Below are positions 26,412 to 49,183 of a stretch of DNA of 64,000 nt, in pieces (positions within the stretch are counted from its first letter, which is position 1; each line of letters opens with the position of its first letter). The notes below the pieces were generated by a model that did not search any database, was not told the DNA's origin, and worked only from the letters and a program-made list of their open reading frames with translations. The DNA is from Ephemerocybe angulata. Lineage: Eukaryota; Basidiomycota; Agaricomycetes; Agaricales; Psathyrellaceae. The DNA lies in assembly GCA_013368325.1 (NCBI GenBank), contig JAACJK010000018.1:1-64000 (forward strand), written 5' to 3'. A program made the position numbers and the translations under genes.

Positions 26412-27786
26412 ATGACCCCCATCATCCCTCGCGAACTGATCGACCTTTGCATCGCAGCATCCAGTGACTGCTTTCCAACACTCCTTCAAGTTTCGCTCGT
26501 CTCGAAAGAATGCGCATCCGAAGCCAGGAAGTACGTGTTCAAGGAAATCAACCTGGACCGACGTGACAGATCCGTGGACGCGTACTCGTATTACATCCAA
26601 ACACTGGTTAATCTCCTAGAAAGTAACAGGATGCTGGGGAATTGCGTCCGCACCTTAATTCTCCCACTCGACCCTTCAATCATCGCGACATCAAAAGTTT
26701 ACACCCAAGATCTCCCGGAGATACTAAAGTACTTCGCATCCCTCGAAATGCTCAGCGTAGCGCCTCCAAGTGACTTCAACTGGGAGGCGCTACCTGATCC
26801 CCTCAAACAATCCATTGGTCTCTGCTGCTCAGCTTCAAGCATCAGCAGACTCGCTTTCGTGTACTTTCTCAACTTCCCGGGGCATCTTCTCCAGTCAGCT
26901 CCCAATCTAACGACCTTGGCTCTTGCTCACGTCAACAGCGGACCAGAAGCTGGGAGTCAGAGTGTACCCGCAGCAGCGTGTATTCGTCCCTCATACGCCG
27001 AGTCCCGCCTGACCACCTTGACCGTCTACGATGCGTCGTCAGTCATGCACAGTTGTATCCTCGCAGATCCAAAATGGATTTCCCAGCTAAAGCAGCTATC
27101 TTGCCATATTTTGACCCAGGAGGACTTGACTTTTTGCTGCCGTCTCATCCGCGAGTGTGCAGCCTCGCTGAAGGAACTAATCATAGACTTCCAGTTCATT
27201 GAAAACAGTACGTCCTCTTGAGTTTGCAACTAAAGACGTTACCTGAGTACTAAATCTGGATTTAGACAGCCCCATCCACCTTGGAGATATGATCAGCCTT
27301 CCCGAAGTTACGAAGTTGACCGTAGGATCTCGCGTCGAGCTTCAAGACCACACCGAAGGGGATCCTGACCCTGGCCCGGAGAGCCAGCTGCCTTTATTTC
27401 TAGACATCCTGCGGTCCCAGCCCAACACAAAGGTATTCATCATCGACATTAAAGTCCGGATCCCCAGCAGCCATATCACGAGCTCGGAGGCACCCCCAGC
27501 GCTCCGCGATCGCGAGGCCTGGAAGGCGATCGACGAATATTTATCCTCGGAAACCATGACAGTGCCGGTTGAGACGGTCCTCATTTTTACGATAGGATGG
27601 GTCGGTCGATCCAGGGCAGATTCAGATGAGCAGCAGCGTTTGTCTGAGGCAGAAGAGATAATTCCTCTCAAAAGCCAACTTCTACGGGAAGCACACGAGG
27701 TTTTGCCCCGAACCGTCAAGGCAGAGAGGGTCCGGATGATCATTGACGACGAGCCCTATTATATGGGTCCGGATTCGGAGGCCTGA
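26412..27786 (+). CDS. F-box-like protein, cluster member 1
   Basis: Exons 26412-27207 and 27266-27786 join in phase into 438 residues. The N-terminus (IIPRELIDLCIAASSDCFPT, then LLQVSLVSKECASEARKYVF) has the LP/IP-x-E-L...L...SLVSK pattern of a degenerate fungal F-box. This would recruit an SCF ubiquitin ligase through Skp1. The rest is a leucine-rich-repeat-like array typical of the fungal family (LAFVYFLNFPGHLLQSAPNL, LTTLALAHVNSG), then a C-terminal domain after the intron. The single intron sits at the same place in all five paralogs. Substrate is unknown. The member-2 copy at 28540 is the closest relative. Start chosen because PIIPRELID aligns with the starts of the paralogs. Confidence 0.8.
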
Positions 27787-28539: not shown

Positions 28540-29860
28540 ATGAGCCCCATCCTCCCTCGTGAGCTGATCGACCTTTGCATCGCAGCATCCAGAGACTGCT
28601 TGCCAACACTCCTCCAATTCTCGCTTGTCTCGAAACAATGCGCATCCGAAGCCAGAAAGTACGCGTTCAAGGAAATTAACCTGGATCGACGTGATAGAGC
28701 CGTGGGCGCGTATTCGTGTTACATCCAAAAATTGCTTAATCTCCTGGAAAGTAACAGGATGCTGGAAAACTACGTCCGCGCTTTGGTCCTCCCACTCGAG
28801 CCTTCAATCTACACGACATCGGAGGTCTATACCGAAGACATCCTAACAATATTAAAGCACTTTACATCCCTCACCACTCTTAGCATAACCCCTCGCGATG
28901 TCTGTGATTGGGAGACGCTGCCTGACTCCCTCAAACAGTCCATTAGCCTCTCCTGCTCGGCCCCAAGCATCATTTCGCTGAATTTCTCCAACTTCCTCAA
29001 CTTCCCGGGGCATCTTGTCCAGTCGGCTCTCAATCTAAAGTTCCTGACGCTTACCAACCTCATCACTGCACGGGATGGTAGGAGTCAGAGTGGACCCCCA
29101 GCAGGGTGTGGCCTTCGCCCACGCTACGAACCCCGCTTGGAGAAACTACAGCACCTAACTTGTTATATAACGAACCAGGAGGACTTTAATTTCTGTTGCC
29201 GTATCATGCGGGAGTGTGCAGGCTCGCTCCGGGTACTGCGCATAGCATTCCTGACTTATAAAGTTATACACAGTGCGTGTGCCCACTTGCAGTCTGCAAA
29301 TTGAGATATTGCCTAGGTACTTACTACAGTTTCTAGACAGCCCCATACACCTTGGGGATATGATCGACCTTCGTCCGGTCGTTACACTGAGGCTATCGTC
29401 CTCCGTCGAGGTTAAAGATCACGGAGTTGGGACTATCGCCCTGGGTCGCCACCTACCTTTATTTCTGGACATACTTCAATTCCAGCGCAACGCAAAGGAA
29501 TTCATTATCGACATTAGAGTCTACAACTCCAGGGGCCACGGCACAGACTCAGAGTTGCCCCCAGCGATTCTCCCCAATTGCGAGGCCTGGAAGGCGATGG
29601 ACGAGTATTTATCCTCAGAAAAAACGACGTCGCCTAAACGCACCTTTCTCAACTTCTACACAATAGGATGGGGTAGCAGGCCCACCACTGACGACCGGTA
29701 TCGCGTCGTTGGGCCCGAACAGATGTCCGCGTTCGAGAATCGACTCCTATCGGAGGCGCGCGAGGTTTTGCACCGAGCCATCGATGCAAACAGACTTTCT
29801 ATAGCCATTAGTGAAGGAAGGATCCCAGCCTTAGCCACTTCCCCGCGACAGGAATCATAG
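28540..29860 (+). CDS. F-box-like protein, cluster member 2
   Basis: Exons 28540-29272 and 29337-29860 join in phase into 418 residues. It is the closest relative of the 26412 gene: ILPRELIDLCIAASRDCLPT at the N-terminus and the same LRR-like middle (FSNFLNFPGHLVQSALNLKF). The C-terminal domain again starts NSPIHLGDMID after the intron. Relative to member 1 it lacks about 20 residues just before LQHLTCYITNQED, an in-frame deletion. The ORF itself is intact. It probably acts as a substrate adaptor for SCF-type ubiquitin ligases, which rests on family resemblance only. Confidence 0.8.
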
Positions 29861-37558: not shown

Positions 37559-38333
37559 TCATTTCCTCCCCGCCGGCTTCGCCTTACCCGGCGCACGCGC
37601 TTTCCGAGGCGCAGCAGGTCGAGCTTGCGCCTTCGACGGAGCAGCCTTACGCGTCGGAGCCTTCCCTTTTCCCTTCACTGGAGCAGCCTTACGCGGACCA
37701 CCCGCCTTCCCACCACGACTCCCTTGAGCACCCTTCGCGTTCGAGCGATTACCACCTTTCTTCGCTGGACCAGGCTTCTTGACGTTCACCGACGCAGGCG
37801 CTTTGGGTACCGCTCCACCGGATCTGGTAGGGCTCCTAGCTGGGACGTTCCGCCCCGTAGTCGTCTTCGGTCTAAGTCCTACTTTGCTTAAGACGGTGTT
37901 GAACCCTTTTTTGATCTTGGCCCAGGGGCTTTCTTTTGGGGGGAGCCTGAAGGTTTTCTGGGGTGGTGGGTGTTAGTTAAAGGGAATGTTAGAGGAGAGG
38001 TTAGAGAGAGAGGGACGTACGGAATTCTGGAGCTTGGGGTAGCAGTCTTTTCCAGCCTGCAATGTATACTTCGTTAGGACATGCCTCGGTCCAAATGATG
38101 ATAGAAATGTTGAAGATAGTAGGATGGATTCTTGTTTAACTCACGCAATTAGCAGATTGAGGGGTTACCGGTTCTTCTTTTCCCGACGGTAGCTTGTCCC
38201 ACCAATCATTATTCTGCTCCCTTCCCGAGGTATCGATCGGCGTTAACTGCGGCCGTACGGGGATCGCCAAGGCTCCTAGAATCCAGCTCGCCGCGATAGT
38301 GAAGAAGAAGAAAAGCTTATGGGTGAGCTGCAT
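37559..38333 (-). CDS. Small secreted protein with basic K/A/P/G-rich tail (SSP1)
   Basis: Exons 38145-38333, 38021-38056 and 37559-37957 join in phase into 207 residues. The N-terminus MQLTHKLFFFFTIAASWILG followed by ALAIPV is a clear signal peptide. The short mature head carries LTPIDTSGREQNNDWWDKLP, shared in part with SSP3 (DTSG...N.W..K.LP), and a C-x4-C pair (CAGKDC). The remainder, from about residue 76, is strongly basic: PWAKIKKGFNTVLSKVG and then lysine, alanine, proline, glycine and arginine in loose repeats to the C-terminus. A TATATAAA box lies 87 bases upstream. Such composition suggests binding to acidic surfaces (wall polymers, membranes, nucleic acids), but no function is known. 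No enzyme domain is present. Confidence 0.75.
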
Positions 38334-38356
38334 TACTGTGACTAGAGCGACCTTCC

Positions 38357-38427
38357 AAGATCCTGCTTGTGGGTGAACAGACCTGCTGTTGGGGGTTATC
38401 AAGAATCGACATGGCCAGGTTTATATA
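38357..38427 (-). promoter_or_regulatory. Core promoter of SSP1 shared with SSP2
   Basis: TATATAAA (minus strand) lies at 38420-38427. A 32-base block at 38357-38388, just upstream of the start codon, is nearly identical to 39272-39303 before SSP2 (AAGATCCTGCTTGTGGG, then GAACAGACC and GCTG on the plus strand). SSP3 keeps only ACAGACCAGCTG at 43070-43081. Confidence 0.6.
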
Positions 38428-38818
38428 GAATTGGGTTGTGGGTGCATGGTTCTAATCTATGAGCGCATCTTACGATGGCTGTACATACAGCCTTACATCG
38501 GACCTCACTGGTCTGCACAGGACGAGACGTTTGTTGATCAAATCCTCTTTATTGCCGCCACGATCAAAGTCACAACGGCGCTCATTGCAGAGCGATGAAT
38601 TTAAGTATCTAAACCCTCTACTGAATTCTTCTACGACACTACTCCACTTGCATATGCCTCCTCCCAACTCGTCACTTCATTCCCACTGGCTTAGCATTAA
38701 CCGAAGCAGTTGATTCGCTGACCGCCAGCCCTCCAGCTCCCTTTGCGGGAATCTCCTTCAAGTCCGCTCGACGGTTTGTAAAAGCCGACTGCTTTCGTTT
38801 TTCAAGGCTCTTTGCGGT

Positions 38819-39254
38819 TCATCCTGTCGCGCCCTCCGCTCCAGGGTCAGGAGGAGGCTTTTGTCCAAATTTGAATATTTCCTTGATCTTTTCCTTCAAG
38901 CTAGTCTTTCTCTGGCGCTCGCTCCCGGGGCGGGCAGGCCGTTGCTTTGACGGCTTTCGAGGTGGCGGCCATAGTTGCTGTGGGGAGATAGGCCGTTAGT
39001 TGGTGCATTTTAGGTCTGGGTGTGGTACTTACAGTACCCTTACCGATAACAACGCGAGGCACGAGCGCGTTGGGGTCTACGTCAAGGGGTAATGCGCTGG
39101 CCACAGCGGTGTCCTATTGAGGTACGTACCTGATGAGTACAAGAAACGAGCAGAAATGAAGTCAACTTACCGCCTTTGGAACGGGTATGGCGAAGGCGGC
39201 TGGTAGCCAGCACGCCACAATGGTGGAGACGAGGAAGAGTAGGTCCGGCTTCAT
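38819..39254 (-). CDS. Small secreted protein with basic tail (SSP2)
   Basis: Three exons (39171-39254, 39033-39113, 38819-38977) join in phase 0 at both junctions into 107 residues. The N-terminus MKPDLLFLVSTIVACWLPAA then FAIPVPK is a signal peptide ending in the same AIP as its neighbours. Exon 2 encodes a short spacer (DTAVASALPLDVDPNALVPR). Exon 3 is basic and proline-rich: LWPPPRKPSKQRPARPGSER, then KTSLKEKIKEIFKFGQKPPP. The KEKIKEIFKFG segment resembles WAKIKKGFNTVL of SSP1 and could form a short amphipathic helix. A TATATAAA box lies 80 bases upstream (39334-39341). It stands head-to-head with the F-box-like gene at 39866, 611 bases apart. Function unknown; an effector or antimicrobial-like role is only a possibility. 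Confidence 0.7.
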
Positions 39255-39271
39255 TATTTTGCTTGGGCTAT

Positions 39272-39341
39272 AAGATCCTGCTTGTGGGGGAACAGACCAG
39301 CTGCTGATACACTACAACTAACATTGGATGCCATTTATATA
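39272..39341 (-). promoter_or_regulatory. Core promoter of SSP2 shared with SSP1
   Basis: TATATAAA (minus strand) at 39334-39341 and the conserved block at 39272-39303, which matches the one before SSP1 in all but a few positions. Confidence 0.6.
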
Positions 39342-39709
39342 GAGCATGTGTGTTTACTGTGGGCGGGGAGGTTTATATGCTCTCATTGAAGAAGGACTAG
39401 ATGTTCTTGATAGCCGCGGGGGAATGCGTGCACTTGCGTTGAGATTAACGAAATCAACTGAATGAATCTGCACCTGAAAACAAGATCTGTTATTTGTGTT
39501 CTAGAAAAGTGTAAACATAGTAGGTAAGCTTGTAGGTCCTTTCGATGGGCGCATCTATGGAACACCCACTTTATGCAACCAACCTGTATGCTCCCGAAGA
39601 AATAAGACACTATATGGCGTAGAGAGAGCTTCTCTCTGTCCCCGTAGCTATGAGGAGATGGGTGACAGTAGGCGAGGTGCACAGAGATGAACGAGAAAAG
39701 GGGCAACCA

Positions 39710-39758
39710 TAGGCGCCCAGTGGCGGGTCCCGCGTTTTGAGATGACATGCTGTGGGAA
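39710..39758 (+). promoter_or_regulatory. TARGCGCC and CSL-type boxes, third F-box-like gene
   Basis: TAGGCGCC at 39710-39717 and TGTGGGAA at 39751-39758 lie 156 and 115 bases before the ATG at 39866. TGTGGGAA is the T variant of the YGTGGGAA CSL consensus. Confidence 0.45.
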
Positions 39759-39865
39759 AGCGCTTACCGATCATTTTAAATTGTGAGACTTCCCATCCGC
39801 AGCCTTCCTCAGCACAACGGTCAGCAAATCCACATATCACGCCTAACCTCATCGGTCTCCAACAT

Positions 39866-41551
39866 ATGCCTACTTCATTCCCTATCGAGATAATTCGCCT
39901 GTTCATCGAGGAATCGAGAGACTGGATGCCCACCCTCCTTCAGCTTGCCCTCGTGTCGAAGGACTGCATGGTCGAATCTCGAAAGTACACCTTCGAACGA
40001 CTTGAGCTTGTCCAGTACGGTCAAAATCCAAGGATAAACTGCGACCGAATCAAGGAATTCCATCGTCTAGTGACAGCAAACATTGCCCTCGGGTCTCACG
40101 TTCGCCATCTCGATCTGGGGATGGAACTTGAGACGTTCAACTCGATAAACCCAAATATTTGCGCCGAAGAACTCCCCGCCATACTCCTCCTCCTTCCAGA
40201 ACTCACGTCTCTCAGCATTACGTGCCATTTAATAGGCCCAGAAAGCGATCGCGACTGGAACACTTGGCCTTGCCAACTAAAAGCTTCCATTAGCCGGTGC
40301 TGCTCTTCCCCAACCATATCTTCACTCCATTTCTCCGACATACGCAATTTCCCTTGCGAAATCCTCACTTTCCCTCCAAATCTCAAGCACCTTTCTCTTA
40401 TCCAGGTCGTTGGATCGGAAGGTGAATCGGAGCTGCCTGTGACTCAGACCCAGCGCTTGGAATCAGTATCAATTCTTGGGGAATGGTCCGTCGTGGCCAA
40501 ATGTGTTCTCGCAAATCCGTCATTCATTTCCTGCCTAACGAAATTATACTGGTACATATTTGACCAAGAGGATATGGCGGTTCTCGGTCGCGTTGTTCGA
40601 GAGATCTCAGGATCATTGCAAGAACTCTCAGTTGAATTTTATCGCGGTTGCCCCCCTCTAGGTACGCCTTTTTCTAGTTTCCTGGCAGCTCTTGGAAAGT
40701 GTACTGATGCAATGGCGAGCAGGAAGCACAGTCACTCCTCTCCCACATTTGAAGAGACTGATTATCTCGTCTGAACTCAACATTAATCCCCTCTTCCAGA
40801 TCCTTACAAATCATCGTAACTTCTACCAGGAGTTGGTGCAATCCCAGCACGAGTTGGAAGACCTGTTATTTACATTCGAGGTCTCGCCTCAGATTGATTC
40901 CGAAAACTTGACTATTAGGGGAGTTCAAAGTTGAACGCGGTTTTGACCGCGGTCGCGGTTTGCCAATGATCGCGGTTTGGGTGGCTGTGGGCTCGCGGAA
41001 ATCGTCACGGCGTGACGAGCATAGATTAGATTTATGACATATATCCGTTCGTTCTTACCGTATACGCCCTACCATGCTTCCAAAGCCCCTTCACAGTACC
41101 TAGCTTCGGCAATATGCCCTCCAAGTGAATTGCGGAACATTGAATATGTCGATAATATGTGCGAAAGAATCTGGAAAGTGACCAGGGCGCGCGCCTGTCA
41201 CATTCAGTCACAAATCCCACAGCCACCCAAACCGCGACCATTGGCAAACCGCGACCGCGGTTCAAACCGCGTTCAACTTTGAACTCCCCTATTATCCCGG
41301 ATATTCAAATCCCACGGTGGGATTCGCTGGACGAACACATCTGCGGACTCAGGCGACCACCAACTCGGACTGTCATTCACTTCACAGTTCTTTGGCCTGC
41401 TCGTGGACTCGGAGGGATGTACCATGCCCCTGATGATTTGAAGGTTGCCTTCAAGAACAGGCTGATGCAAGAAGCACAAAACGCTCTACATCGAAGTGTG
41501 GAAGCGGGAAGGGTCACCGTCGTACTTGATGAAAGTAATGAAAGTAATTGA
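39866..41551 (+). pseudogene. F-box-like gene, cluster member 3, broken by a transposon
   Basis: Exon 1 (39866-40661) starts TSFPIEIIRLFIEESRDWMP with LLQLALVSKDCMVESRKY, the degenerate F-box shared by the cluster, followed by LRR-like repeats. Exon 2 starts at 40723 and runs in frame to 40917, where a 372-bp inverted-repeat element is inserted. Coding resumes at 41295 (IPDIQIPRW onward) and ends at 41551. Taking out the element and one TATTA duplicate gives one continuous frame of about 415 residues that matches the 43401 paralog on both sides (QSQHELEDLLFTFEVSP before, LKVAFKNRLMQEAQNALHRS after). With the element present, translation ends a few codons into it unless it is spliced out. Confidence 0.85.
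40918..41289. mobile_element. 372-bp inverted-repeat element (MITE) inside an F-box-like gene
   Basis: The ends are near-perfect inverted repeats of about 75 bases starting GGGGAGTTCAAAGTTGAACG. They are rich in ACCGCGGTCGCGGTT-type CG motifs, which also pair within each arm. The flanking 5-bp duplication is TATTA (40913-40917 and 41290-41294), and its status as a true duplication is confirmed because removing one copy restores the host reading frame. There is no coding capacity. A 5-bp duplication does not fit mariner (TA) or hAT (8 bp), so I leave the superfamily open. Confidence 0.9.
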
Positions 41552-41766
41552 CGCACTCGCTGTGTAATGGGTGGTCACTTCAAGTCGATACCAACACATG
41601 TAAGACCTTAGCTAGTGAGTTACTACCATCTTGCGCTTTCATTTAAAGAATGAGTCCCCAATTTTCACTCTCTGTCATCTATCCCCGAGTCTGACGCAAT
41701 ATCTATCCTCGCTTTTTACAAGCCTCGATGGGATGAAAAATATCAATTCGTACACTACTAACATCG

Positions 41767-41950
41767 CTACTTTCGCTTCCCCGCAGACTTGCCCTTTGCC
41801 GATATAGCCGCACCTGTTTTCTTCGGCTGTGCCGGTCGAGCTGCGGCTCCACCCTTTAGTTCGGCCAAGCAGGTTGCGAGAGAAGCCCGTTGTTATACCA
41901 TTAGTGACTGGGGTATCGGATGATGTTCTGCCACTAGGCAGGGGAGGCAA
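41767..41950 (-). pseudogene. Relic of a small secreted protein gene, basic tail only
   Basis: A minus-strand frame ending at 41767 encodes LATCLAELKGGAAARPAQPK then KTGAAISAKGKSAGKRK and stop. This is the lysine/alanine-rich tail style of SSP1. No signal peptide exon or acceptor site could be found upstream, and the frame is closed by a stop just before it. Probably the 3' stump of a further family member between the F-box-like genes. Confidence 0.4.
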
Positions 41951-42378
41951 CTCGGGGTTCTCTGTGTTTCTGGCTCGGATGGGAAGGAGAATGGGGCCTC
42001 CCAGGCCCCAAGGGTGCTATTCTGGCTGAACAAGGTGCTGAAGCTTGAGCTATCACGTTACGGGGGAGCAGAATGGGATTGCTGGAGTGCAGAAGTGATG
42101 GTAGAATATTACTTTTAATTTCTTCGCCAACTCGTAGACTACTGGGGCCATAAACGGGCCATCGAGCGGGCGCTACTTAATTCGACGAATAAATGTCTCG
42201 TAATTCCGAATATATTTACTGTCACATGACTGGCCAAAACGCCAGCGATTTTTGATCGATTTCGCCGAGATGACCGAACGCGACCCTCCCGTCAAATGCC
42301 CACCAATTGATGCAGACCTTACATTCACACCGATCGACTCATCATCGGATTTTGTGATCGTAAGGTCAGCAACGGAGA

Positions 42379-43004
42379 CTACGCCTTCCCTCCGCCACTC
42401 TTACGAACTGGCTTCACTTTGGGATCCTTCTTCGAGCCTGAAGGTTTCTGTCCCTTCGGAGTCGGTGCTGATTTGCCATTCTTCTGGGGCTTGGGGATAT
42501 TTCTGCTGTGTGGCCGTGGTTGAAGCCCAGACGGGATGAATGGTATTACGGGTGCAAGGGGTGGAGGAGGTGGGAACGCCCACTATATACTACGCATTAA
42601 CACCCATACGTATGTATCCTATGATACCCGAGTACTGAACACTCACGGACTCTCTGAGCTTGGGATACCACTTGAGCGGGTTAAATTTCTGGGAGATAAG
42701 TTCAATCTCAATAACGAAGATATGAAGCCAAATCAGGCGGTGCACGTACCGCCCATATTGGTGACTGTACCGCTGATGCTACACCATACTGTTCAAGCGC
42801 ACATTATGAGCCTTAATCAAGTTCGCAAAAAAAAGAGTGAGCAATACGAACGGGAAGGTACTTCGTGTACCAGTTATAATTATATATTTTGCCAGAGGTG
42901 TCAACAGTGAGTTTTGGCCTGTCGGCGGGAAGGGGGATGGCGAAGGCCGATAGAGAGCAACCAAGTGCAATCGCGAAGAGAAAGAAAAGTCGATAGATCT
43001 GCAT
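42379..43004 (-). CDS. Small secreted protein with basic tail (SSP3)
   Basis: The start MQIYRLFFLFAIALGCSLSA then FAIPLP (43004) is a signal peptide with the family's AIP end. The first exon continues LTVDTSGKIYNYNWYTKYLP, matching SSP1 (DTSG, N.W..K.LP). A second exon, about 42643-42684, encodes KFNPLKWYPKLRES and lines up with YPKLQNS of SSP1. The last exon begins after TATATAG near 42582 with WAFPPPPPLAPVIPFIP. It ends in a lysine-rich tail, NIPKPQKNGKSAPTPKGQKP then GSKKDPKVKPVRKSGGGKA, stop at 42379. The end of exon 1 near 42859 is uncertain, because its donor would be GTTCGT. About 146 residues. The gene is head-to-head with the 43401 F-box-like gene, 396 bases apart. Confidence 0.6.
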
Positions 43005-43250
43005 CCTGTGTAATTGGGGTTTCGTTTGGTGGATTGGGTCCAACTCTCTGAGCTTGGAGACTAGTATGGACAGACCAGCTGCCAGTGTGTTGGAGTGGAT
43101 GTGAACTGATATTTATGTGTTCGAATTTTGTGGGTACGTAGTAGGCGGTTGTGTGCACAGTTTCTGCGAGCGCATCACTGGCTACTTACCATGTCTCGAT
43201 CTTCGTGGGTACACTGTGTGCCGAACTGTGTTTGCATGACAAGAAAGAAT

Positions 43251-43292
43251 TAGGCGCCCACAGGCTGAGACATTGGCAACATATCGTGGGAA
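43251..43292 (+). promoter_or_regulatory. TARGCGCC and CSL-type boxes, fourth F-box-like gene
   Basis: TAGGCGCC at 43251-43258 and CGTGGGAA at 43285-43292, 150 and 116 bases before the ATG at 43401. They lie in the shared intergenic region with SSP3. Confidence 0.45.
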
Positions 43293-43400
43293 TGGTTACA
43301 ATCGTTATGAGACTCGATCTCCTTCCTCAGCTCAAACACAACCATCACCACCATCATCACCCGTCCACACTTCACTCCTACCCTCAGCGGTCTTCAAAAG

Positions 43401-44788
43401 ATGCCCAGTTCAATCCCAATCGAGATTATCTACCTGTTCATCGAGGCATCGAGGGACTGGATGCCCACCCTCCTTCAGTTCGCCCTAGTTTCGAAGGAAT
43501 GCATGGTTGAATCTCGAAAGTACGCCTTCGAACGAGTTAAACTAGGCCAAAGCCTTCCGTCTCCAGATTTCAACTGCCGCCAAATCAAGAAACTGCATGC
43601 TCTTATGACGGCAAACATTGCCCTTGGGACATACATTCGCCATCTCGATCTCGGGATGGAGTCCATCTGCATAGACGACAACCATGGCTTACATGAGCTC
43701 TCTGCCATCCTCCTCCGACTTCCAGCACTCGCCTCTCTTAGCTTTTCTTCTGGTGAATGGTGCCGCAGATACCGATGTCAATACGACTGGAACGGTTGGC
43801 CTAGCCCCTTAAAAGCATCCATCGAGCGGTGCTGCTCGTCCCCAACGATAACTACACTCCATTTTGCCGACATTGTCAACTTCCCTGACGGTCTCCTAAC
43901 TTTGTCCCCAAATCTCGAAGTCCTTATCCTTGAACAGATCGGTGGAGTGGCAGAAAGTCCAGATGAACTGCGGAGGCCCGTAACGCAAAGAACGCAAAGA
44001 CAGAGCTTGAAAACACTATCAATTGCTGGTGGATGGTCTGTTGCCAGTTGCGTCCTCGTAGCTCCCCAATCATTTTCCTCCATAACAAAGCTACACTGGG
44101 ACCTATCAGAGCCAGAGGAAGTATTCGCCCTCGATCGCGTTGCTTGGGAGATTCCAAGGTCGTTGCAAGAACTGTCGATTCAGTTTTCTTTTTGTTTCCA
44201 GGTTATCCCTTCAGGTACGGTCTATTGTAGCAGTGCCCTAAGTGTGTACTGATGTGATTGTCCGCAGAAGGCAGCTTGGGAGGTCTCCCACAAGTGAAAA
44301 AATTGGTCGTGACGTCCTATTTCATAGACATCGAGGACCCCGATTTCCCAGCAACCAGTATCCGACAACCGCCGCCCGCTCATCTCTTCTTGGCCGGGCA
44401 GTTGCTGCAATCGCAACGCGAGTTAGAAGTCTTCCTATTCAAATGCACAGTCTGTCCTCCTGAGATTGATATCGGTACTACGGGGCTTGCTATTCCCCCC
44501 GACATCCAACCGCGTTGCGATGGGTGGAAGTTGCTGGACGAGCTACTGTCCGGACTCAGGAAACCACCAACGATCATATTCCACTTTACGGCTTTCTGGA
44601 TCCCCCTTCCTTCCAGTCGAGTCCATGTGACTCACGATTTGAAGGCCGCCTTCAAGGACTGGCTGATGCAAGAAGCAGAAAACGTCCTATGCCAAAGTAT
44701 GGAAGCGGGAGCGCTCACCATTGTGCTCGACGAGACGACGAGATATCTTAATGAGAACTGGGAAGTGTTGTCCACATTGTGGGGGTAG
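43401..44788 (+). CDS. F-box-like protein, cluster member 4
   Basis: Exons 43401-44214 and 44268-44788 join in phase into 444 residues. The N-terminus SSIPIEIIYLFIEASRDWMP with LLQFALVSKECMVESRKYAF is the cluster's degenerate F-box. LRR-like repeats follow (LHFADIVNFPDGLLTLSPNL), then a C-terminal region with LKAAFKDWLMQEAENVLCQS. It is the intact sister of the broken 39866 gene. The presumed role is substrate recognition for an SCF ubiquitin ligase, inferred from the F-box only. The gene pairs head-to-head with SSP3 across 396 bases that contain the two shared promoter boxes. Confidence 0.82.
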
Positions 44789-45391: not shown

Positions 45392-45999
45392 ATGGGGTCT
45401 ACCCTCCCTCTTGAGCTCATCTACCTTTGCATCAAAGCATCCAGTGACTCCTTCGCAGCACTTCGCCAACTATCTCTAGTTTCGAAAGAGTGTGCGTCCG
45501 AAACCCGGAAGTACGTATTCAAGGACGTCAAGCTGGATCGACGGGGCAGGGATGTAGATCTGTATCCTCATCGCATTCGAGCATTCCTTGATCTCCTCTC
45601 GGCCAACGGAGGATTGGCATCCTACATCCGCAGCCTACTCGTTAAACTTGAGCCCTCGACCTATGCAGCGACGGAAGTCTACACCCATGACCTACCAGCG
45701 ATACTAGACCTACTCACAGACCTCACGACACTCCAGCTAAACAGCGCTGCTACCCTCCCTAACCATGGCGCTGACTGGGACACATTGCCTGATCAACTAA
45801 GGTCGTCCATCACCCGGCGCTGCTCCGCTCTAAGCATCACCAATCTGGCTTTCGGTGACCTCAAGAACTTCCCGCAGACCCTGCTCCCTTCGGCCTCCAG
45901 ACTCACGCACCTCTCCCTCCTGCGGGTCCGTGGCCCAGCGGGGGCTCAGAGTGTGTCGACAACGCAGGATGTAGTAGGCCGCTTGGGACAACCCTTAGA

Positions 46000-46241
46000 T
46001 GTAAGCCCGCCGTCAATTGGGCACACTGAGGTCGCACGAGTAACAGGACCAAGGGGTAGTCGTTAGAGCAGAACGGGTACTACGAGTTTACAGGGGGCAG
46101 AGCATGATTGCTCTGGGTATACTACGCGTGGCTACGATGTGGTACTGTACAGTTTATGGGAGCAATGTAAAAGCATCAACTCCGAAAGCAAAAGGTCGGA
46201 ACACGAACGGGCCGCGTGGTAAGCTGGGCGCCAGCCTTACA
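46000..46241 (-). repeat. Long terminal repeat (3' with respect to gag)
   Basis: 242 bp, TGTAAG...CTTACA, matching 47829-48070 without visible difference. Confidence 0.92.
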
Positions 46242-46424
46242 CCCCTCCCCACCCAAAAACCTTGTCACCACCCCGGAGCAGCGCTAGCCAGTCAAGCAAT
46301 GGTGGGGCCTTGGGCAGCAAAAGAATGTCTAGCTGTAGCAAAAACACACGTAGTGACGGAAAAAAAAACATGGCCACGAAGCAAAATAAAATCAAAACAA
46401 AACAAAAACCAAATTCAAATCACC

Positions 46425-47753
46425 TCAGTCGCTTTCCTCATCCGTATCGTCATCTCGGGGGTCTCCTTCCCTATACGTCGGGTGGACATAGTCGTCTTCT
46501 ATGCCCATGCTGAAGACAGCACTGGCAAGCATACGCGAGTCCGGTTGGTCTTCACCACCAAGTTCAAAGCGGGGTGAGGACGAGGCGAAGGCGACCACCG
46601 AGCGAGGCTCCTGCTTGACGATGGATGGAGCAACATAGTCCCGACCTGGAGAGATCCCCTTCGATGGGTCACCAGGACAGGTCCTTCCAATGTGCTTGGT
46701 CCACCCGTAGTCGGTAGGTAACTTCCGGCACCTCCAGCATCCTCCGTTCTGCGAAATGAATTCGCGCTCAGCGTCGGTGAGTGGGGCAGGGACGGGGGAG
46801 GAGGAAGATCCCGGATTAAAGCTGGGGACGTAAGGCGGGGCCCCTGGGGCAGGGGTAGGGACAGCAGAGCGCTCTGAGCGTGTCGAAGGTCGTCCAGACC
46901 CATCGGCGAGGAGACTATCCCACTGCATGGACATGAGGGAGGCGAGATCGTCAAACGAGGTGCTCTCGAGGTTGAAGTCAGGGAGAGCCATTATGCGAAG
47001 GAGGAGTTGGGGATGGGAGTGGAAGAGGAGGTGGTACTTGTACGTCTTGCCATCGACTTCCTTCTCGGTGACCACGTTGCGAGCTTCAGCAAGTGCTGCT
47101 GCGTAATCGGCGAAGTGGGAGCGTCCCTGAGAGCACAAGTAAAACGTACGTAGGGAGATCATCTTCTGAGCCTTGGGGATGAACCTCTTCTCCAACTTCG
47201 ATACAAACAGCTCGTACGTCTCGAGCTTCAAACATTCTGCCCTGGATGCCGCCCACCACGCTGCTGTAGTCGGCTCATGGAGCTGGGTGCCGGCGATGCG
47301 GATCTTCATCTTCGGTTCAAGGGTAACAGCCTTATCAGGCTTGGAGTTGGTCGCCTCGTAGATGGCAAAGTTGTCCTCGACTTGAGCCAACCATAGCTTG
47401 AGCGACGTGCCGTTCAACGGCCCAGTAAACACGGGCGTGATCTTCGATGCCATAGTGGCGGTGGCGAGCGTGATCGATGATGATGTGCTGAGTGATCTCG
47501 GGGTAAGGGGATGAGAGGCAATGTACTCGGGTAAGGGGATGCGGCGGGGACGTTTGGATGATGCTGAAGGGGGTCCGTGATATGCGGGGATTTCGAAATC
47601 GGACTCGTCCGAGTCAGGGTCGTCCGAACGGGAATCGTCTCCAAGACCCTTGCGAGGGCGGCGGCGTAATGTGAGATCCTGCGCTACCAAAATGGGAAGT
47701 CCAAGAGAGCTAGCCGAGTGACGAGTGAAGCGAGGTGCGGGGGAGGCGTCCAC
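46425..47753 (-). CDS. Retrotransposon Gag capsid/nucleocapsid protein
   Basis: One uninterrupted frame of 442 residues. A disordered R/S/D-rich leader ends at ATATMASKITPVF. The capsid-like middle, FTGPLNGTSLKLWLAQVEDN through RFIPKAQKMISLRTFYLCSQ, has the pattern of Ty3/gypsy-type Gag in fungi. A proline-rich linker leads to one zinc knuckle, CWRCRKLPTDYGWTKHIGRT then C (C-x2-C-x11-H-x4-C, a long-spaced form seen in agaricomycete Gag). An acidic tail follows (DPRDDDTDEESD). It would package the element RNA into particles. The frame is fully open, which fits a young insertion. There is no downstream pol frame before the LTR. Confidence 0.85.
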   Translation of the reverse strand: MDASPAPRFTRHSASSLGLPILVAQDLTLRRRPRKGLGDDSRSDDPDSDESDFEIPAYHGPPSASSKRPRRIPLPEYIASHPLTPRSLSTSSSITLATATMASKITPVFTGPLNGTSLKLWLAQVEDNFAIYEATNSKPDKAVTLEPKMKIRIAGTQLHEPTTAAWWAASRAECLKLETYELFVSKLEKRFIPKAQKMISLRTFYLCSQGRSHFADYAAALAEARNVVTEKEVDGKTYKYHLLFHSHPQLLLRIMALPDFNLESTSFDDLASLMSMQWDSLLADGSGRPSTRSERSAVPTPAPGAPPYVPSFNPGSSSSPVPAPLTDAEREFISQNGGCWRCRKLPTDYGWTKHIGRTCPGDPSKGISPGRDYVAPSIVKQEPRSVVAFASSSPRFELGGEDQPDSRMLASAVFSMGIEDDYVHPTYREGDPRDDDTDEESD

Positions 47754-47828
47754 GGTGTCGATGGGAGCGCGATAAGACTGAATATGGCAAAAGAGCGAAA
47801 AAGGGAAAGGCCGATGTTAAAAAAAAAG

Positions 47829-48070
47829 TGTAAGCCCGCCGTCAATTGGGCACACTGAGGTCGCACGAGTAACAGGACCAAGGGGTAGTCGTTAGAGCAG
47901 AACGGGTACTACGAGTTTACAGGGGGCAGAGCATGATTGCTCTGGGTATACTACGCGTGGCTACGATGTGGTACTGTACAGTTTATGGGAGCAATGTAAA
48001 AGCATCAACTCCGAAAGCAAAAGGTCGGAACACGAACGGGCCGCGTGGTAAGCTGGGCGCCAGCCTTACA
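47829..48070 (-). repeat. Long terminal repeat (5' with respect to gag)
   Basis: 242 bp, matching 46000-46241. It should carry the promoter for the gag transcript. Confidence 0.92.
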
Positions 48071-49183
48071 TTAGAGTCGTTCAGCGTCAACGATTCGACG
48101 TGGATCGCGGCCAATTGTATCTTCGCCAACCCAGGCCCGATACCCAGCTTGAGAAAACTGACCTGGACCATCCCCGACCAGCGCGACCTGGACACCCTGT
48201 TGTACGTTCTCCGCAAGTGTGGCGCGTCGCTAAAAGAACTGGACCTCAGCTTCCAGCTTCCTTTTGTAGATCCCAATTTAAACCGTAAGTATACCCGTTC
48301 GCTGCACGGTATTCAACGAATCATGCAGGCTAATAAGATCCTTTACCCATTATGTGCTGAAAGATATGATTAATGCCCTGCACATTGGCGCCGGCATGGT
48401 CGACCTTCCTCAGCTGCAACTCATGTCCCTGTCATCCGAGACCCTCCTCAGCGAAATCGATTTTGACACCACCGCCGGCCTGGGGAGCCACCTGCGCCTC
48501 TTCGTCGCCATCCTGCGAACGCAGCGTCTCCTCCCCGTGCTCAAGCTCACCATCAAACTGTGGAACCCAGAATTCATGACCGGTACCAGAGCCTCACAGA
48601 TCCTGCGGGACCGAGCGGACTGGAAGGCATTGGACGCGCACCTGATCTCCGCGCACCCGGCGCCGCTGTTCACCAAGCTTTATTTCACCGTCATATGGTT
48701 GGGTGCGGGGTCAATCAACACGCTGTCCCCCTCCCAGGTCGAGAAGAGAGATGCATTTAGTCAGCAGCTGCTGCAAGAAACATATGAGCTCCTGTCCGAA
48801 AGTTACAGGGCAAACAAGTTTACGGTTTCCATGGAGCAATTCGCCTTATCCCGGAGTGGCGTACACAGGAATCCCCAATCTTGAATCCCATCCATTTTCC
48901 TATTTACTCAGCTACCCGGGTCTGACCACTATTCGGGGGTTCTGCGCACAGTTGAATGGCGTCCTCGGCAGAACTCACTCTCTATTATCGAACGATTGTT
49001 GGCTACCCTACCTTTCCCTGCTTCTGGAAGTCACGCTTCTATACCTGTGCATTGCTGGCAATTATTTGCGCGGATTACTTCTGCAAGGCTCTTGTTCTGT
49101 ACAGCTCTACGTCTACACTTCTCGAAAGTTGAAACAGAGCTCGCGCGGGCGCTTCACGTCGAACCATCAACCAGTTGCCACTG

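What the first reader, a model, noticed from the sequence alone, without database searches (positions are those of the whole stretch)
37559..44788. Repeated head-to-head pairs of a small basic secreted protein and an F-box-like protein
SSP2 (39254, minus) stands head-to-head with the F-box-like gene at 39866. SSP3 (43004, minus) stands head-to-head with the F-box-like gene at 43401. SSP1 and an SSP relic at 41.8 kb lie in the same block. The secreted proteins share a signal peptide ending AIP, a DTSG...NxW..KLP head and lysine-rich tails. The F-box genes are clear paralogs. A duplicated divergent module of a secreted basic peptide plus an intracellular SCF adaptor suggests co-regulation and perhaps a linked function (self/non-self, symbiosis, or control of a secreted factor). 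I know of no described system of this layout.
Basis: partly seen in the sequence, partly recalled or inferred. Interest (0 to 1): 0.75.

Follow-up and report, generated by a model that had tools for sequence, protein, structure and literature searches.

The report
Duplicated secreted-protein and F-box-like gene pairs
In a small ink-cap mushroom, one neighbouring pair of genes (a tiny, very basic secreted protein and a fast-changing F-box-like protein) was copied within one gene cluster; the pairs are real, but each of the three carries a damaged gene and nothing yet shows that the two genes work together.

Summary
The block is real. The source is Ephemerocybe angulata (Psathyrellaceae). Two divergent pairs stand at 39254/39866 and 43004/43401. 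A third, just outside the window, is an inverted segmental copy of the second (90% over 3.7 kb).

Corrections:
- SSP2 lacks the DTSG..NxW head.
- The "SSP relic" at 41.8 kb is the severed 3' end of SSP3, cut off by a ~513-bp partly repetitive insert.
- F-box 39866 is truncated by a 372-bp inverted-repeat element.
- The outside SSP copy is frameshifted.

So each pair has a lesion, and two intact SSPs (SSP1, SSP5) have no divergent F-box.

The three paired F-box-like genes fall in one clade. 17 of 17 other loci examined lack such a neighbour. SSPs were found only in E. angulata and only on this contig; relatives in another E. angulata assembly appear to share a contig with F-box1-type genes.

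The F-box-like gene is the variable partner. Its coding sequence differs by 10.6% inside a duplication whose spacer differs by 1.8% and whose next gene by 3.3%. One member is a mosaic of two from the other assembly. SSPs vary less between assemblies.

Best reading: one neighbour arrangement copied by segmental duplication in a recombining, transposon-hit cluster. A functional link is possible but unshown.

The parts
37559..38333 (-). SSP1: 207 aa, signal peptide ..LGALAIP, DTSG..NNDWWDKLP head, Lys/Arg/Ala/Pro tail; exons 38333-38145, 38056-38021, 37957-37559. No divergent F-box partner.
   Evidence: identical to D9611_014187 (P0006); mature net charge +35, pI 11.5
38819..39254 (-). SSP2: 107 aa, signal peptide ..AAFAIP, no DTSG/NxW head; exons 39254-39171, 39113-39033, 38977-38819. 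Pair A.
   Evidence: identical to D9611_014188 (P0009)
39255..39865 (.). Spacer A (611 bp) between SSP2 and F-box1
   Evidence: its SSP side shares a 35-bp stretch (91%) with the SSP1 upstream region
39866..41551 (+). F-box1: exon 1 39866-40661, intron 40662-40722, exon 2 from 40723; exon 2 interrupted at 40918, rest of the gene 41295-41551. Pair A.
   Evidence: database model D9611_014189 (P0005, 335 aa) ends inside the insert, while P0004 of the other assembly runs 415 aa
40918..41289 (.). 372-bp element with 76-bp terminal inverted repeats (96%), flanked by TATTA on both sides
   Evidence: 11 matches listed, 3 of them within the element itself
41767..41848 (-).
   Evidence: continuous with the SSP tail in the inverted copy; P0008 also has such a tail unbroken
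41849..42382 (.). Insert (~513 bp net) that cuts SSP3 and supplies a new stop codon; its 42.1-42.4 kb side is repeated in the genome, the other side gave no match
   Evidence: 29 matches listed, the window itself included; most cover only about 60 bp or less at one end
42379..43004 (-). SSP3: 145 aa as it stands, AIP, DTSG..YNWYTKYLP head; exons 43004-42852, 42788-42750, 42688-42647, 42582-42379. Pair B.
   Evidence: against the inverted copy: exon 1 94.6%, exon 3 100%, exon 4 97.8% of aligned bases; intron stretches 92.3-94.4%
43005..43400 (.). Spacer B (396 bp), 98.2% identical to the spacer of pair C
43401..44788 (+). F-box2: 444 aa; exon 1 43401-44214, intron 44215-44267, exon 2 44268-44788. 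Pair B. No homologous-protein hit was identical to it.
45392..48884 (+). F-box3, unpaired paralog that follows F-box2 and lies in the same duplicated segment; split at about 46000-48070 by an element with identical 242-bp direct end repeats
26412..27786 (+). Unpaired paralog of the F-box-like family (exon 1 matched; the ORF from 27289 taken as its second exon)
28540..29860 (+). Unpaired paralog of the F-box-like family (exon 1 matched; the ORF from 29360 taken as its second exon), 78% DNA identity to the one at 26.4 kb over 623 bp

Best explanation
The pairs are copies of one ancestral neighbour arrangement: a gene for a small secreted polycationic protein beside a gene of one clade of a large F-box-like family. 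Shown: a segment holding SSP3, F-box2 and F-box3 was duplicated in inverted orientation some 20 kb away (pair C). Inferred: pair A and pair B arose by an older duplication of the same two-gene unit. The cluster then evolved by birth and death: transposable elements, a frameshift and recombination broke or shuffled members. Mechanism, inferred: the F-box-like proteins have a conserved N-terminal F-box-like region and a more variable C-terminal repeat-like region, as expected of cytosolic SCF substrate adaptors whose target-binding part is diversifying. The SSPs are exported through the secretory route; their very basic tails (net +8 to +54) would bind acidic polymers such as cell wall, nucleic acid or microbial surfaces. 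The two products would then act in different compartments, and their adjacency would be inherited rather than a working unit.
For: Inverted copy: C226:65500-69069 matches window 45999-42382 at 90.2% over 3669 bp; 64656-65504 matches 48914-48071 at 93.7%; 69090-69441 matches 41848-41498 at 84.2%. The third pair has the same 396-bp spacer at 98.2% identity. The copy ends about 54 bases inside the 3' end of F-box1, so the window's version is probably the source. The three paired F-box-like genes of this assembly and the three close ones of the other assembly form one clade with 100/99 support (the neighbours of the latter three are unknown, so the tool counted them as unpaired). 17 of 17 other loci (L014-L030) show no AIP-type secreted ORF divergently upstream within 1.5 kb (9 of the 17 do have some other hydrophobic-start ORF there). 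Lesions: F-box1 truncated, SSP3 tail severed, SSP4 frameshifted by 10 bp. Intact SSP1 and SSP5 stand without a divergent F-box. F-box2 coding differences 132 of 1240 against spacer 7 of 396 (p 7e-10), F-box2-F-box3 spacer 23 of 592 (4e-7), F-box3 20 of 604 (1e-8), SSP3 gene 29 of 617 (1e-5). F-box1 is a mosaic: of 52 informative sites, 26:5 favour P0003 before the break and 2:19 favour P0004 after it, permutation p <= 5e-5.
Against: The pairing is found in 3 of 3 clade members of this assembly. Spacer B/C is the best conserved non-coding stretch of the duplicated segment (1.8% against 3.9% in the next spacer, p 0.06), which could mean shared regulation. In the other assembly an SSP1-type, an SSP2-type and an SSP1/SSP3-type protein lie on a contig of 590,052 bp, the same length as that of two F-box1-type genes, so linkage seems at least partly kept (distances unknown). 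Spacers A and B share little, so a common origin of pairs A and B rests on gene homology and order alone.
Confidence: 0.72

Rival explanations
1. The F-box-like protein neutralises or polices its secreted neighbour. The SSP is harmful to cells when it is mislocalised or taken up, and the linked F-box-like protein sends it to the proteasome, either as a toxin-antidote driver or as a self/non-self system like S-RNase and SLF.
For: Linked pair of a very basic secreted protein and a fast-evolving F-box-like protein, copied as a unit; the first 40 alignment columns are 92-100% identical within each subfamily while later 40-column blocks fall as low as 51-62%; no SSP found outside one species. Precedents: the KSS antidotes of C. 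[quoted passage not shown] rice HPA is an F-box protein in the antidote role, though its authors detected no physical interaction with the toxin in vitro (PMC10657391, passages).
Against: Pair A keeps an intact SSP2 beside a truncated F-box1; SSP1 and SSP5 are intact without a divergent partner; SSPs are more conserved between the two assemblies (SSP2 C-terminal part 64 of 65 residues by eye; SSP1 92%) than the F-box-like proteins (77-83%), unlike a self/non-self determinant; a signal peptide puts the SSP in another compartment; no toxicity data.
Confidence: 0.08
2. Bidirectional co-regulation without physical interaction: both genes are switched on together, for example in fruiting bodies, through the shared 396-611 bp spacer.
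For: Spacer B/C differs at only 7 of 396 positions. F-box genes are widely regulated in mushroom development: 80 of 210 in Flammulina filiformis were developmentally expressed (PMC7567395, passages).
Against: A TATATAA box followed by CAGCNGGYCTGT (read by eye) stands upstream of SSP1, SSP2 and SSP5, and SSP1 and SSP5 have no divergent F-box. Spacers A and B share only 77 bp at 64% on the F-box side and a 13-bp match.
Confidence: 0.15
3. The SSP genes are spurious or decaying open reading frames and only the F-box-like genes are real.
For: Three of the six SSP sequences found on the contig are damaged or fragmentary (SSP3, SSP4, the 77.2-kb tail).
Against: Same type of signal peptide and 5' region in several copies; SSP1 and SSP2 relatives are conserved in another assembly; SSP5 keeps a 289-aa frame.
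Confidence: 0.05

Closest known systems
Expanded F-box gene families of Agaricomycetes
   Same: Large family (30 places by one query, 52 by another, lower bounds), N-terminal LPxEL...SLVSK.C...AR+..F region, clustered copies
   Different: Pfam models do not reach it, and one small clade is linked to a secreted-protein gene
KSS F-box antidotes / fars-3-derived toxins of Caenorhabditis tropicalis (PMC12680543, passages seen)
   Same: Fast-evolving F-box-like protein duplicated as a module with a linked gene
   Different: There toxicity and degradation were shown experimentally; here the partner carries a signal peptide, is the more conserved of the two, and no effect is known
S-RNase / SLF self-incompatibility locus of plants (recalled; only mentioned in the passages seen)
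   Same: Basic secreted protein linked to an array of F-box genes
   Different: SSP1 has no Pfam domain and SSPs are fairly conserved between the two assemblies, whereas S-RNases are highly polymorphic (recalled)
Lysine-rich small secreted proteins of fungi (recalled)
   Same: Under 300 aa, signal peptide, no Pfam domain (SSP1 scanned), seen in one species
   Different: This family has histone-H1-like Lys/Arg/Ala/Pro tails and few or no cysteines

Membership tests
F-box proteins | N-terminal F-box domain recognisable by sequence | tested here: inconclusive
   No Pfam F-box match among 5 family N-terminal ORFs at E<=1 (which also held one C-terminal exon and one gag-like ORF), 6 family proteins at E<=10 and 7 at E<=10 (one of them also). 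Two sub-threshold hints: LRR_At5g56370 (FBD-associated F-box protein, LRR repeats) in F-box1 at E 0.35 and FNIP repeat in the F-box2 copy at E 0.021. Profile comparison with seven Pfam-positive F-boxes of the same genome lands in the LPxEL register with probability 0.7% (A3) and 20.7%, P 0.0011 (A7).
F-box proteins | Fold of three helices plus a C-terminal solenoid; binds SKP1 | not testable with these tools
Small secreted proteins | Under 300 aa with N-terminal signal peptide and no known domain | tested here: met
   SSP1 207, SSP2 107, SSP3 145, SSP5 289 aa; signal peptide judged by a simple hydrophobicity script for SSP2, SSP3 and SSP4 and by eye for SSP1 and SSP5, not by a trained predictor; no Pfam hit for SSP1, the only SSP scanned.
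Toxin-antidote element | Tightly linked two-gene unit | tested here: met
   396-611 bp between start codons in three pairs.
Toxin-antidote element | Both genes intact in the same unit | tested here: not met
   Each of three pairs has one truncated or frameshifted member; in pair B only the SSP tail is lost.
Toxin-antidote element | Poisoning of non-carriers and rescue by the antidote | not testable with these tools
   Needs crosses or expression.
Bidirectional-promoter gene pair | Short divergent spacer | tested here: met
   396 and 611 bp.
Bidirectional-promoter gene pair | Correlated expression | not testable with these tools
   No RNA data available.
S-RNase/SLF-like self/non-self locus | Secreted determinant highly polymorphic between haplotypes | tested here: not met
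   SSP1 92% between assemblies and SSP2 C-terminal part 64 of 65 residues by eye; only two assemblies compared.

The most novel reading that the evidence does not exclude
The cluster is a fungal toxin-antidote or self/non-self locus in which a family of secreted polycations is kept in check by linked, recombining, hypervariable F-box-like adaptors. It would be a fungal counterpart of the S-RNase/SLF locus or the KSS antidotes, with solitary SSPs covered in trans by neighbouring F-box genes.
Probability: 0.05. Interest if true: 0.85.

Novelty: new member of a known kind. Interest (0 to 1): 0.3.

Why it matters
It documents, at sequence level, how a two-gene neighbourhood in a mushroom is copied, recombined and broken within one species, and it names the variable partner (the F-box-like gene). 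If a functional link were shown it would bring an F-box/secreted-protein conflict system to fungi. As it stands it is mainly a caution: repeated head-to-head pairs can be duplication by descent.

Tried and rejected
Rejected: a separate SSP relic gene at 41.8 kb (it is the severed tail of SSP3). Rejected: SSP homologs elsewhere in the genome. Three SSP queries gave C226 matches plus one weak match each on C115, C117 and C218; C115 reads as an eIF4G-like protein (recalled), and C117 and C218 show no signal peptide. The genome search is word-based: the SSP1 query missed SSP2, SSP4 and SSP5, so further distant members may be missed. Tried: linking the family to Pfam-positive F-boxes by walking through L028 (52 places); compared by eye, none coincides with the PF12937 places. 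Tried: positive selection as the sole cause of F-box2 divergence. dN/dS is 0.72 overall; it exceeds 1 in two of the ten 45-codon blocks with enough codons (1.95 in codons 90-135; 2.68 in the last, with a single synonymous change), while dS in codons 225-315 is 0.31-0.36 against about 0.06 in F-box3, so imported divergent sequence fits better than selection alone.

Neighbour scan: one search read minus-strand loci in the wrong orientation; one search repeated those seven turned round (recovering SSP4) and the eleven other plus-strand loci with a laxer cut-off. It sees only ORFs of 25 or more codons from an ATG in one exon, within 1.5 kb. L023, L027 and L029 are partial matches, so their gene starts are uncertain. 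10 of the 30 places had no locus and were not scanned. For SSP5 the upstream 1.5 kb was read; C226:73001-76289 was not fetched.

Protein searches draw candidates by shared 5-residue words (7633, 27 and 1157 candidates). One search did not list the distant paralogs of this same genome, so absence from other species is a statement about close relatives only.

Literature: 10 searches. No title or abstract start that they listed describes this layout; the three that combined F-box with secreted-protein and mushroom terms gave 0, 2 and 0 papers. Those two papers (PMC8708209, PMC8955403) were not opened.
Full report
WHERE IT IS. The window is bases 1-64000 of a 140,410-bp contig (C226) of a 58.7-Mb assembly in 232 contigs. 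Protein searches name it: the window's SSP1 is identical to D9611_014187 of Ephemerocybe angulata, taxid 980116, Psathyrellaceae.

WHAT IS THERE. SSP1, SSP2 and SSP3 are minus-strand genes with a signal peptide ending AIP. Models of SSP1 (three exons, 207 aa) and SSP2 (three exons, 107 aa) equal the database proteins letter for letter. SSP1 and SSP3 share DTSG, an N.W and KLP/KYLP; SSP2 lacks the DTSG and N.W stretch. Mature products are basic: net +35 (SSP1), +8 (SSP2), +18 (SSP3) and +54 (SSP5), pI 10.3-12.0. Divergently from SSP2 and SSP3 run F-box1 (39866) and F-box2 (43401), spacers 611 and 396 bp.

A THIRD PAIR AND A FIFTH SSP. The genome search with F-box2 exon 1 gave 30 places, eight of them on C226; after F-box2 itself the best is C226:67245-68042 minus at 79%. 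An SSP copy (SSP4, start C226:68439, plus) stands head-to-head with it. The whole stretch is an inverted copy of the window: 90.2% over 3669 bp, plus flanking pieces at 93.7% and 84.2%. SSP4 carries 10 extra bases in exon 1 that shift the frame and give a stop after 37 codons. A further SSP (SSP5, 289 aa) lies at C226:77790 plus with no F-box in the 1.5 kb upstream, and a bare SSP3-type tail at about C226:77.2-77.4 kb. I found no SSP on another contig (weak hits checked).

THE RELIC AND THE LESIONS. Aligning the window with its inverted copy, SSP3 and the '41.8-kb relic' are one continuous stretch in the copy; the window has about 513 extra bases, part of which recurs in the genome (29 matches listed including the window itself, most covering about 60 bp or less at one end). 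P0008 of the other assembly also has an uninterrupted tail of this type. F-box1 is cut in exon 2 by a 372-bp inverted-repeat element flanked by TATTA (11 matches listed, 3 of them within the element itself); its database model stops there at 335 aa, whereas the close relative P0004 has 415 aa. F-box3 is split by an element with identical 242-bp direct ends. So pair A has a damaged F-box, pair B an SSP shortened at its tail, pair C a frameshifted SSP.

IS THE PAIRING GENERAL? Not in what could be seen. A tree of 20 family rows puts the three paired genes and P0002, P0003 and P0004 in one clade (100/99). The neighbours of those three are unknown; counted as unpaired, the label needs 3 changes on the tree, no fewer than when shuffled. 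17 of 17 other loci (L014-L030) show no AIP-type ORF divergently upstream within 1.5 kb; 9 of the 17 have some other hydrophobic-start ORF there. The same scan finds SSP2, SSP3 and SSP4. SSP1 and SSP5 have no divergent F-box. Upstream of SSP1, SSP2 and SSP5 stands a TATATAA box followed by CAGCNGGYCTGT, the latter also before SSP3 (sequences printed, motif read by eye): an SSP promoter, if it is one, that does not need an F-box on the other side.

HOW THE TWO PARTNERS EVOLVE. Inside one duplicated segment the F-box2 coding sequence (to 44735) differs at 132 of 1240 aligned positions, the pair spacer at 7 of 396, the F-box2-F-box3 spacer at 23 of 592, F-box3 at 20 of 604 and the SSP3 gene at 29 of 617. 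The excess rises from about 43480 on; the first 45 codons carry three differences. Both dN and dS are raised (dN/dS 0.72), which suggests exchange with a divergent copy or allele besides any selection. F-box1 matches P0003 in its first part and P0004 in its second (26:5 then 2:19 informative sites, permutation p <= 5e-5). P0008 joins an SSP1-type exon 1 to an SSP3-type remainder, as annotated. The cluster thus seems to recombine among its own members. Between assemblies the F-box-like proteins are 77-83% identical, SSP1 92%, and the SSP2 C-terminal part 64 of 65 residues by eye.

IS IT AN F-BOX? Likely but not shown. The motif LPxEL...TL..LSLVSK.C..EAR+..F is conserved in the family. Pfam finds no F-box, only sub-threshold LRR-type hints in two members (LRR_At5g56370, E 0.35; FNIP, E 0.021). 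Profile comparison with seven Pfam-positive F-boxes of this genome lands in the right register with weak support (0.7%; 20.7%, P 0.0011).

MECHANISM. Shown: duplication of pair B into pair C, lesions, uneven divergence, a mosaic F-box1. Inferred: the older A/B duplication; F-box-like proteins as cytosolic substrate adaptors with a diversifying target-binding part; SSPs as exported polycations that bind acidic surfaces. My best account is inherited adjacency. The linked-function account is not excluded: all three clade members of this assembly are paired, and in the other assembly SSP1-, SSP2- and SSP1/SSP3-type proteins seem to be on the same 590-kb contig as two F-box1-type genes, while the F-box2-type gene is on another contig.

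LITERATURE. Seen as passages only: PMC12680543, PMC10657391, PMC7567395, PMC8893723, PMC10182949 and PMC7368018. PMC10182949 and PMC7368018 analyse a genome under the name Coprinellus angulatus; the word F-box did not occur in their main texts. That Coprinellus angulatus and Ephemerocybe angulata are the same fungus is recalled.

VERDICT. A real, well-made observation with misreadings (the SSP2 head, the relic, the intactness of F-box1), an ordinary evolutionary explanation and a small chance of something much better. Interest 0.3.

Noticed in passing
window 46000-48070: Element with identical 242-bp direct end repeats and a gag-like ORF (weak Retrotrans_gag match, below cut-off) splits F-box3; identical ends suggest a recent insertion.
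   Followed up: partly
window 40918-41289: 372-bp inverted-repeat element; related fragments on C151, C124, C11, C128 and C43 of the same genome.
   Followed up: partly
L031:7113-8912 (C226, about 71-73 kb): A long WD40-repeat ORF lies next to the inverted copy; such proteins in mushrooms are often NACHT-type receptors (recalled), so the cluster may sit beside a candidate immune-receptor gene.
   Followed up: no
L032:93-944 (C226, about 79.1 kb): An ORF starting MMEPRLPLDILTIIPDYI looks like another, different F-box-type protein just downstream of SSP5.
   Followed up: no
P0008 (DFP72DRAFT_1046527): Other-assembly SSP with an SSP1-type first exon and an SSP3-type remainder: a chimera within the SSP family, as annotated.
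   Followed up: partly
window 42379-44788: No hit identical to F-box2 or SSP3 appeared in the protein searches although neighbours have identical entries, so these two genes may be missing or different in the public annotation.
   Followed up: no
window 26412-27786 and 28540-29860: A direct tandem pair of unpaired F-box-like paralogs, 78% identical in DNA over 623 bp.
   Followed up: no
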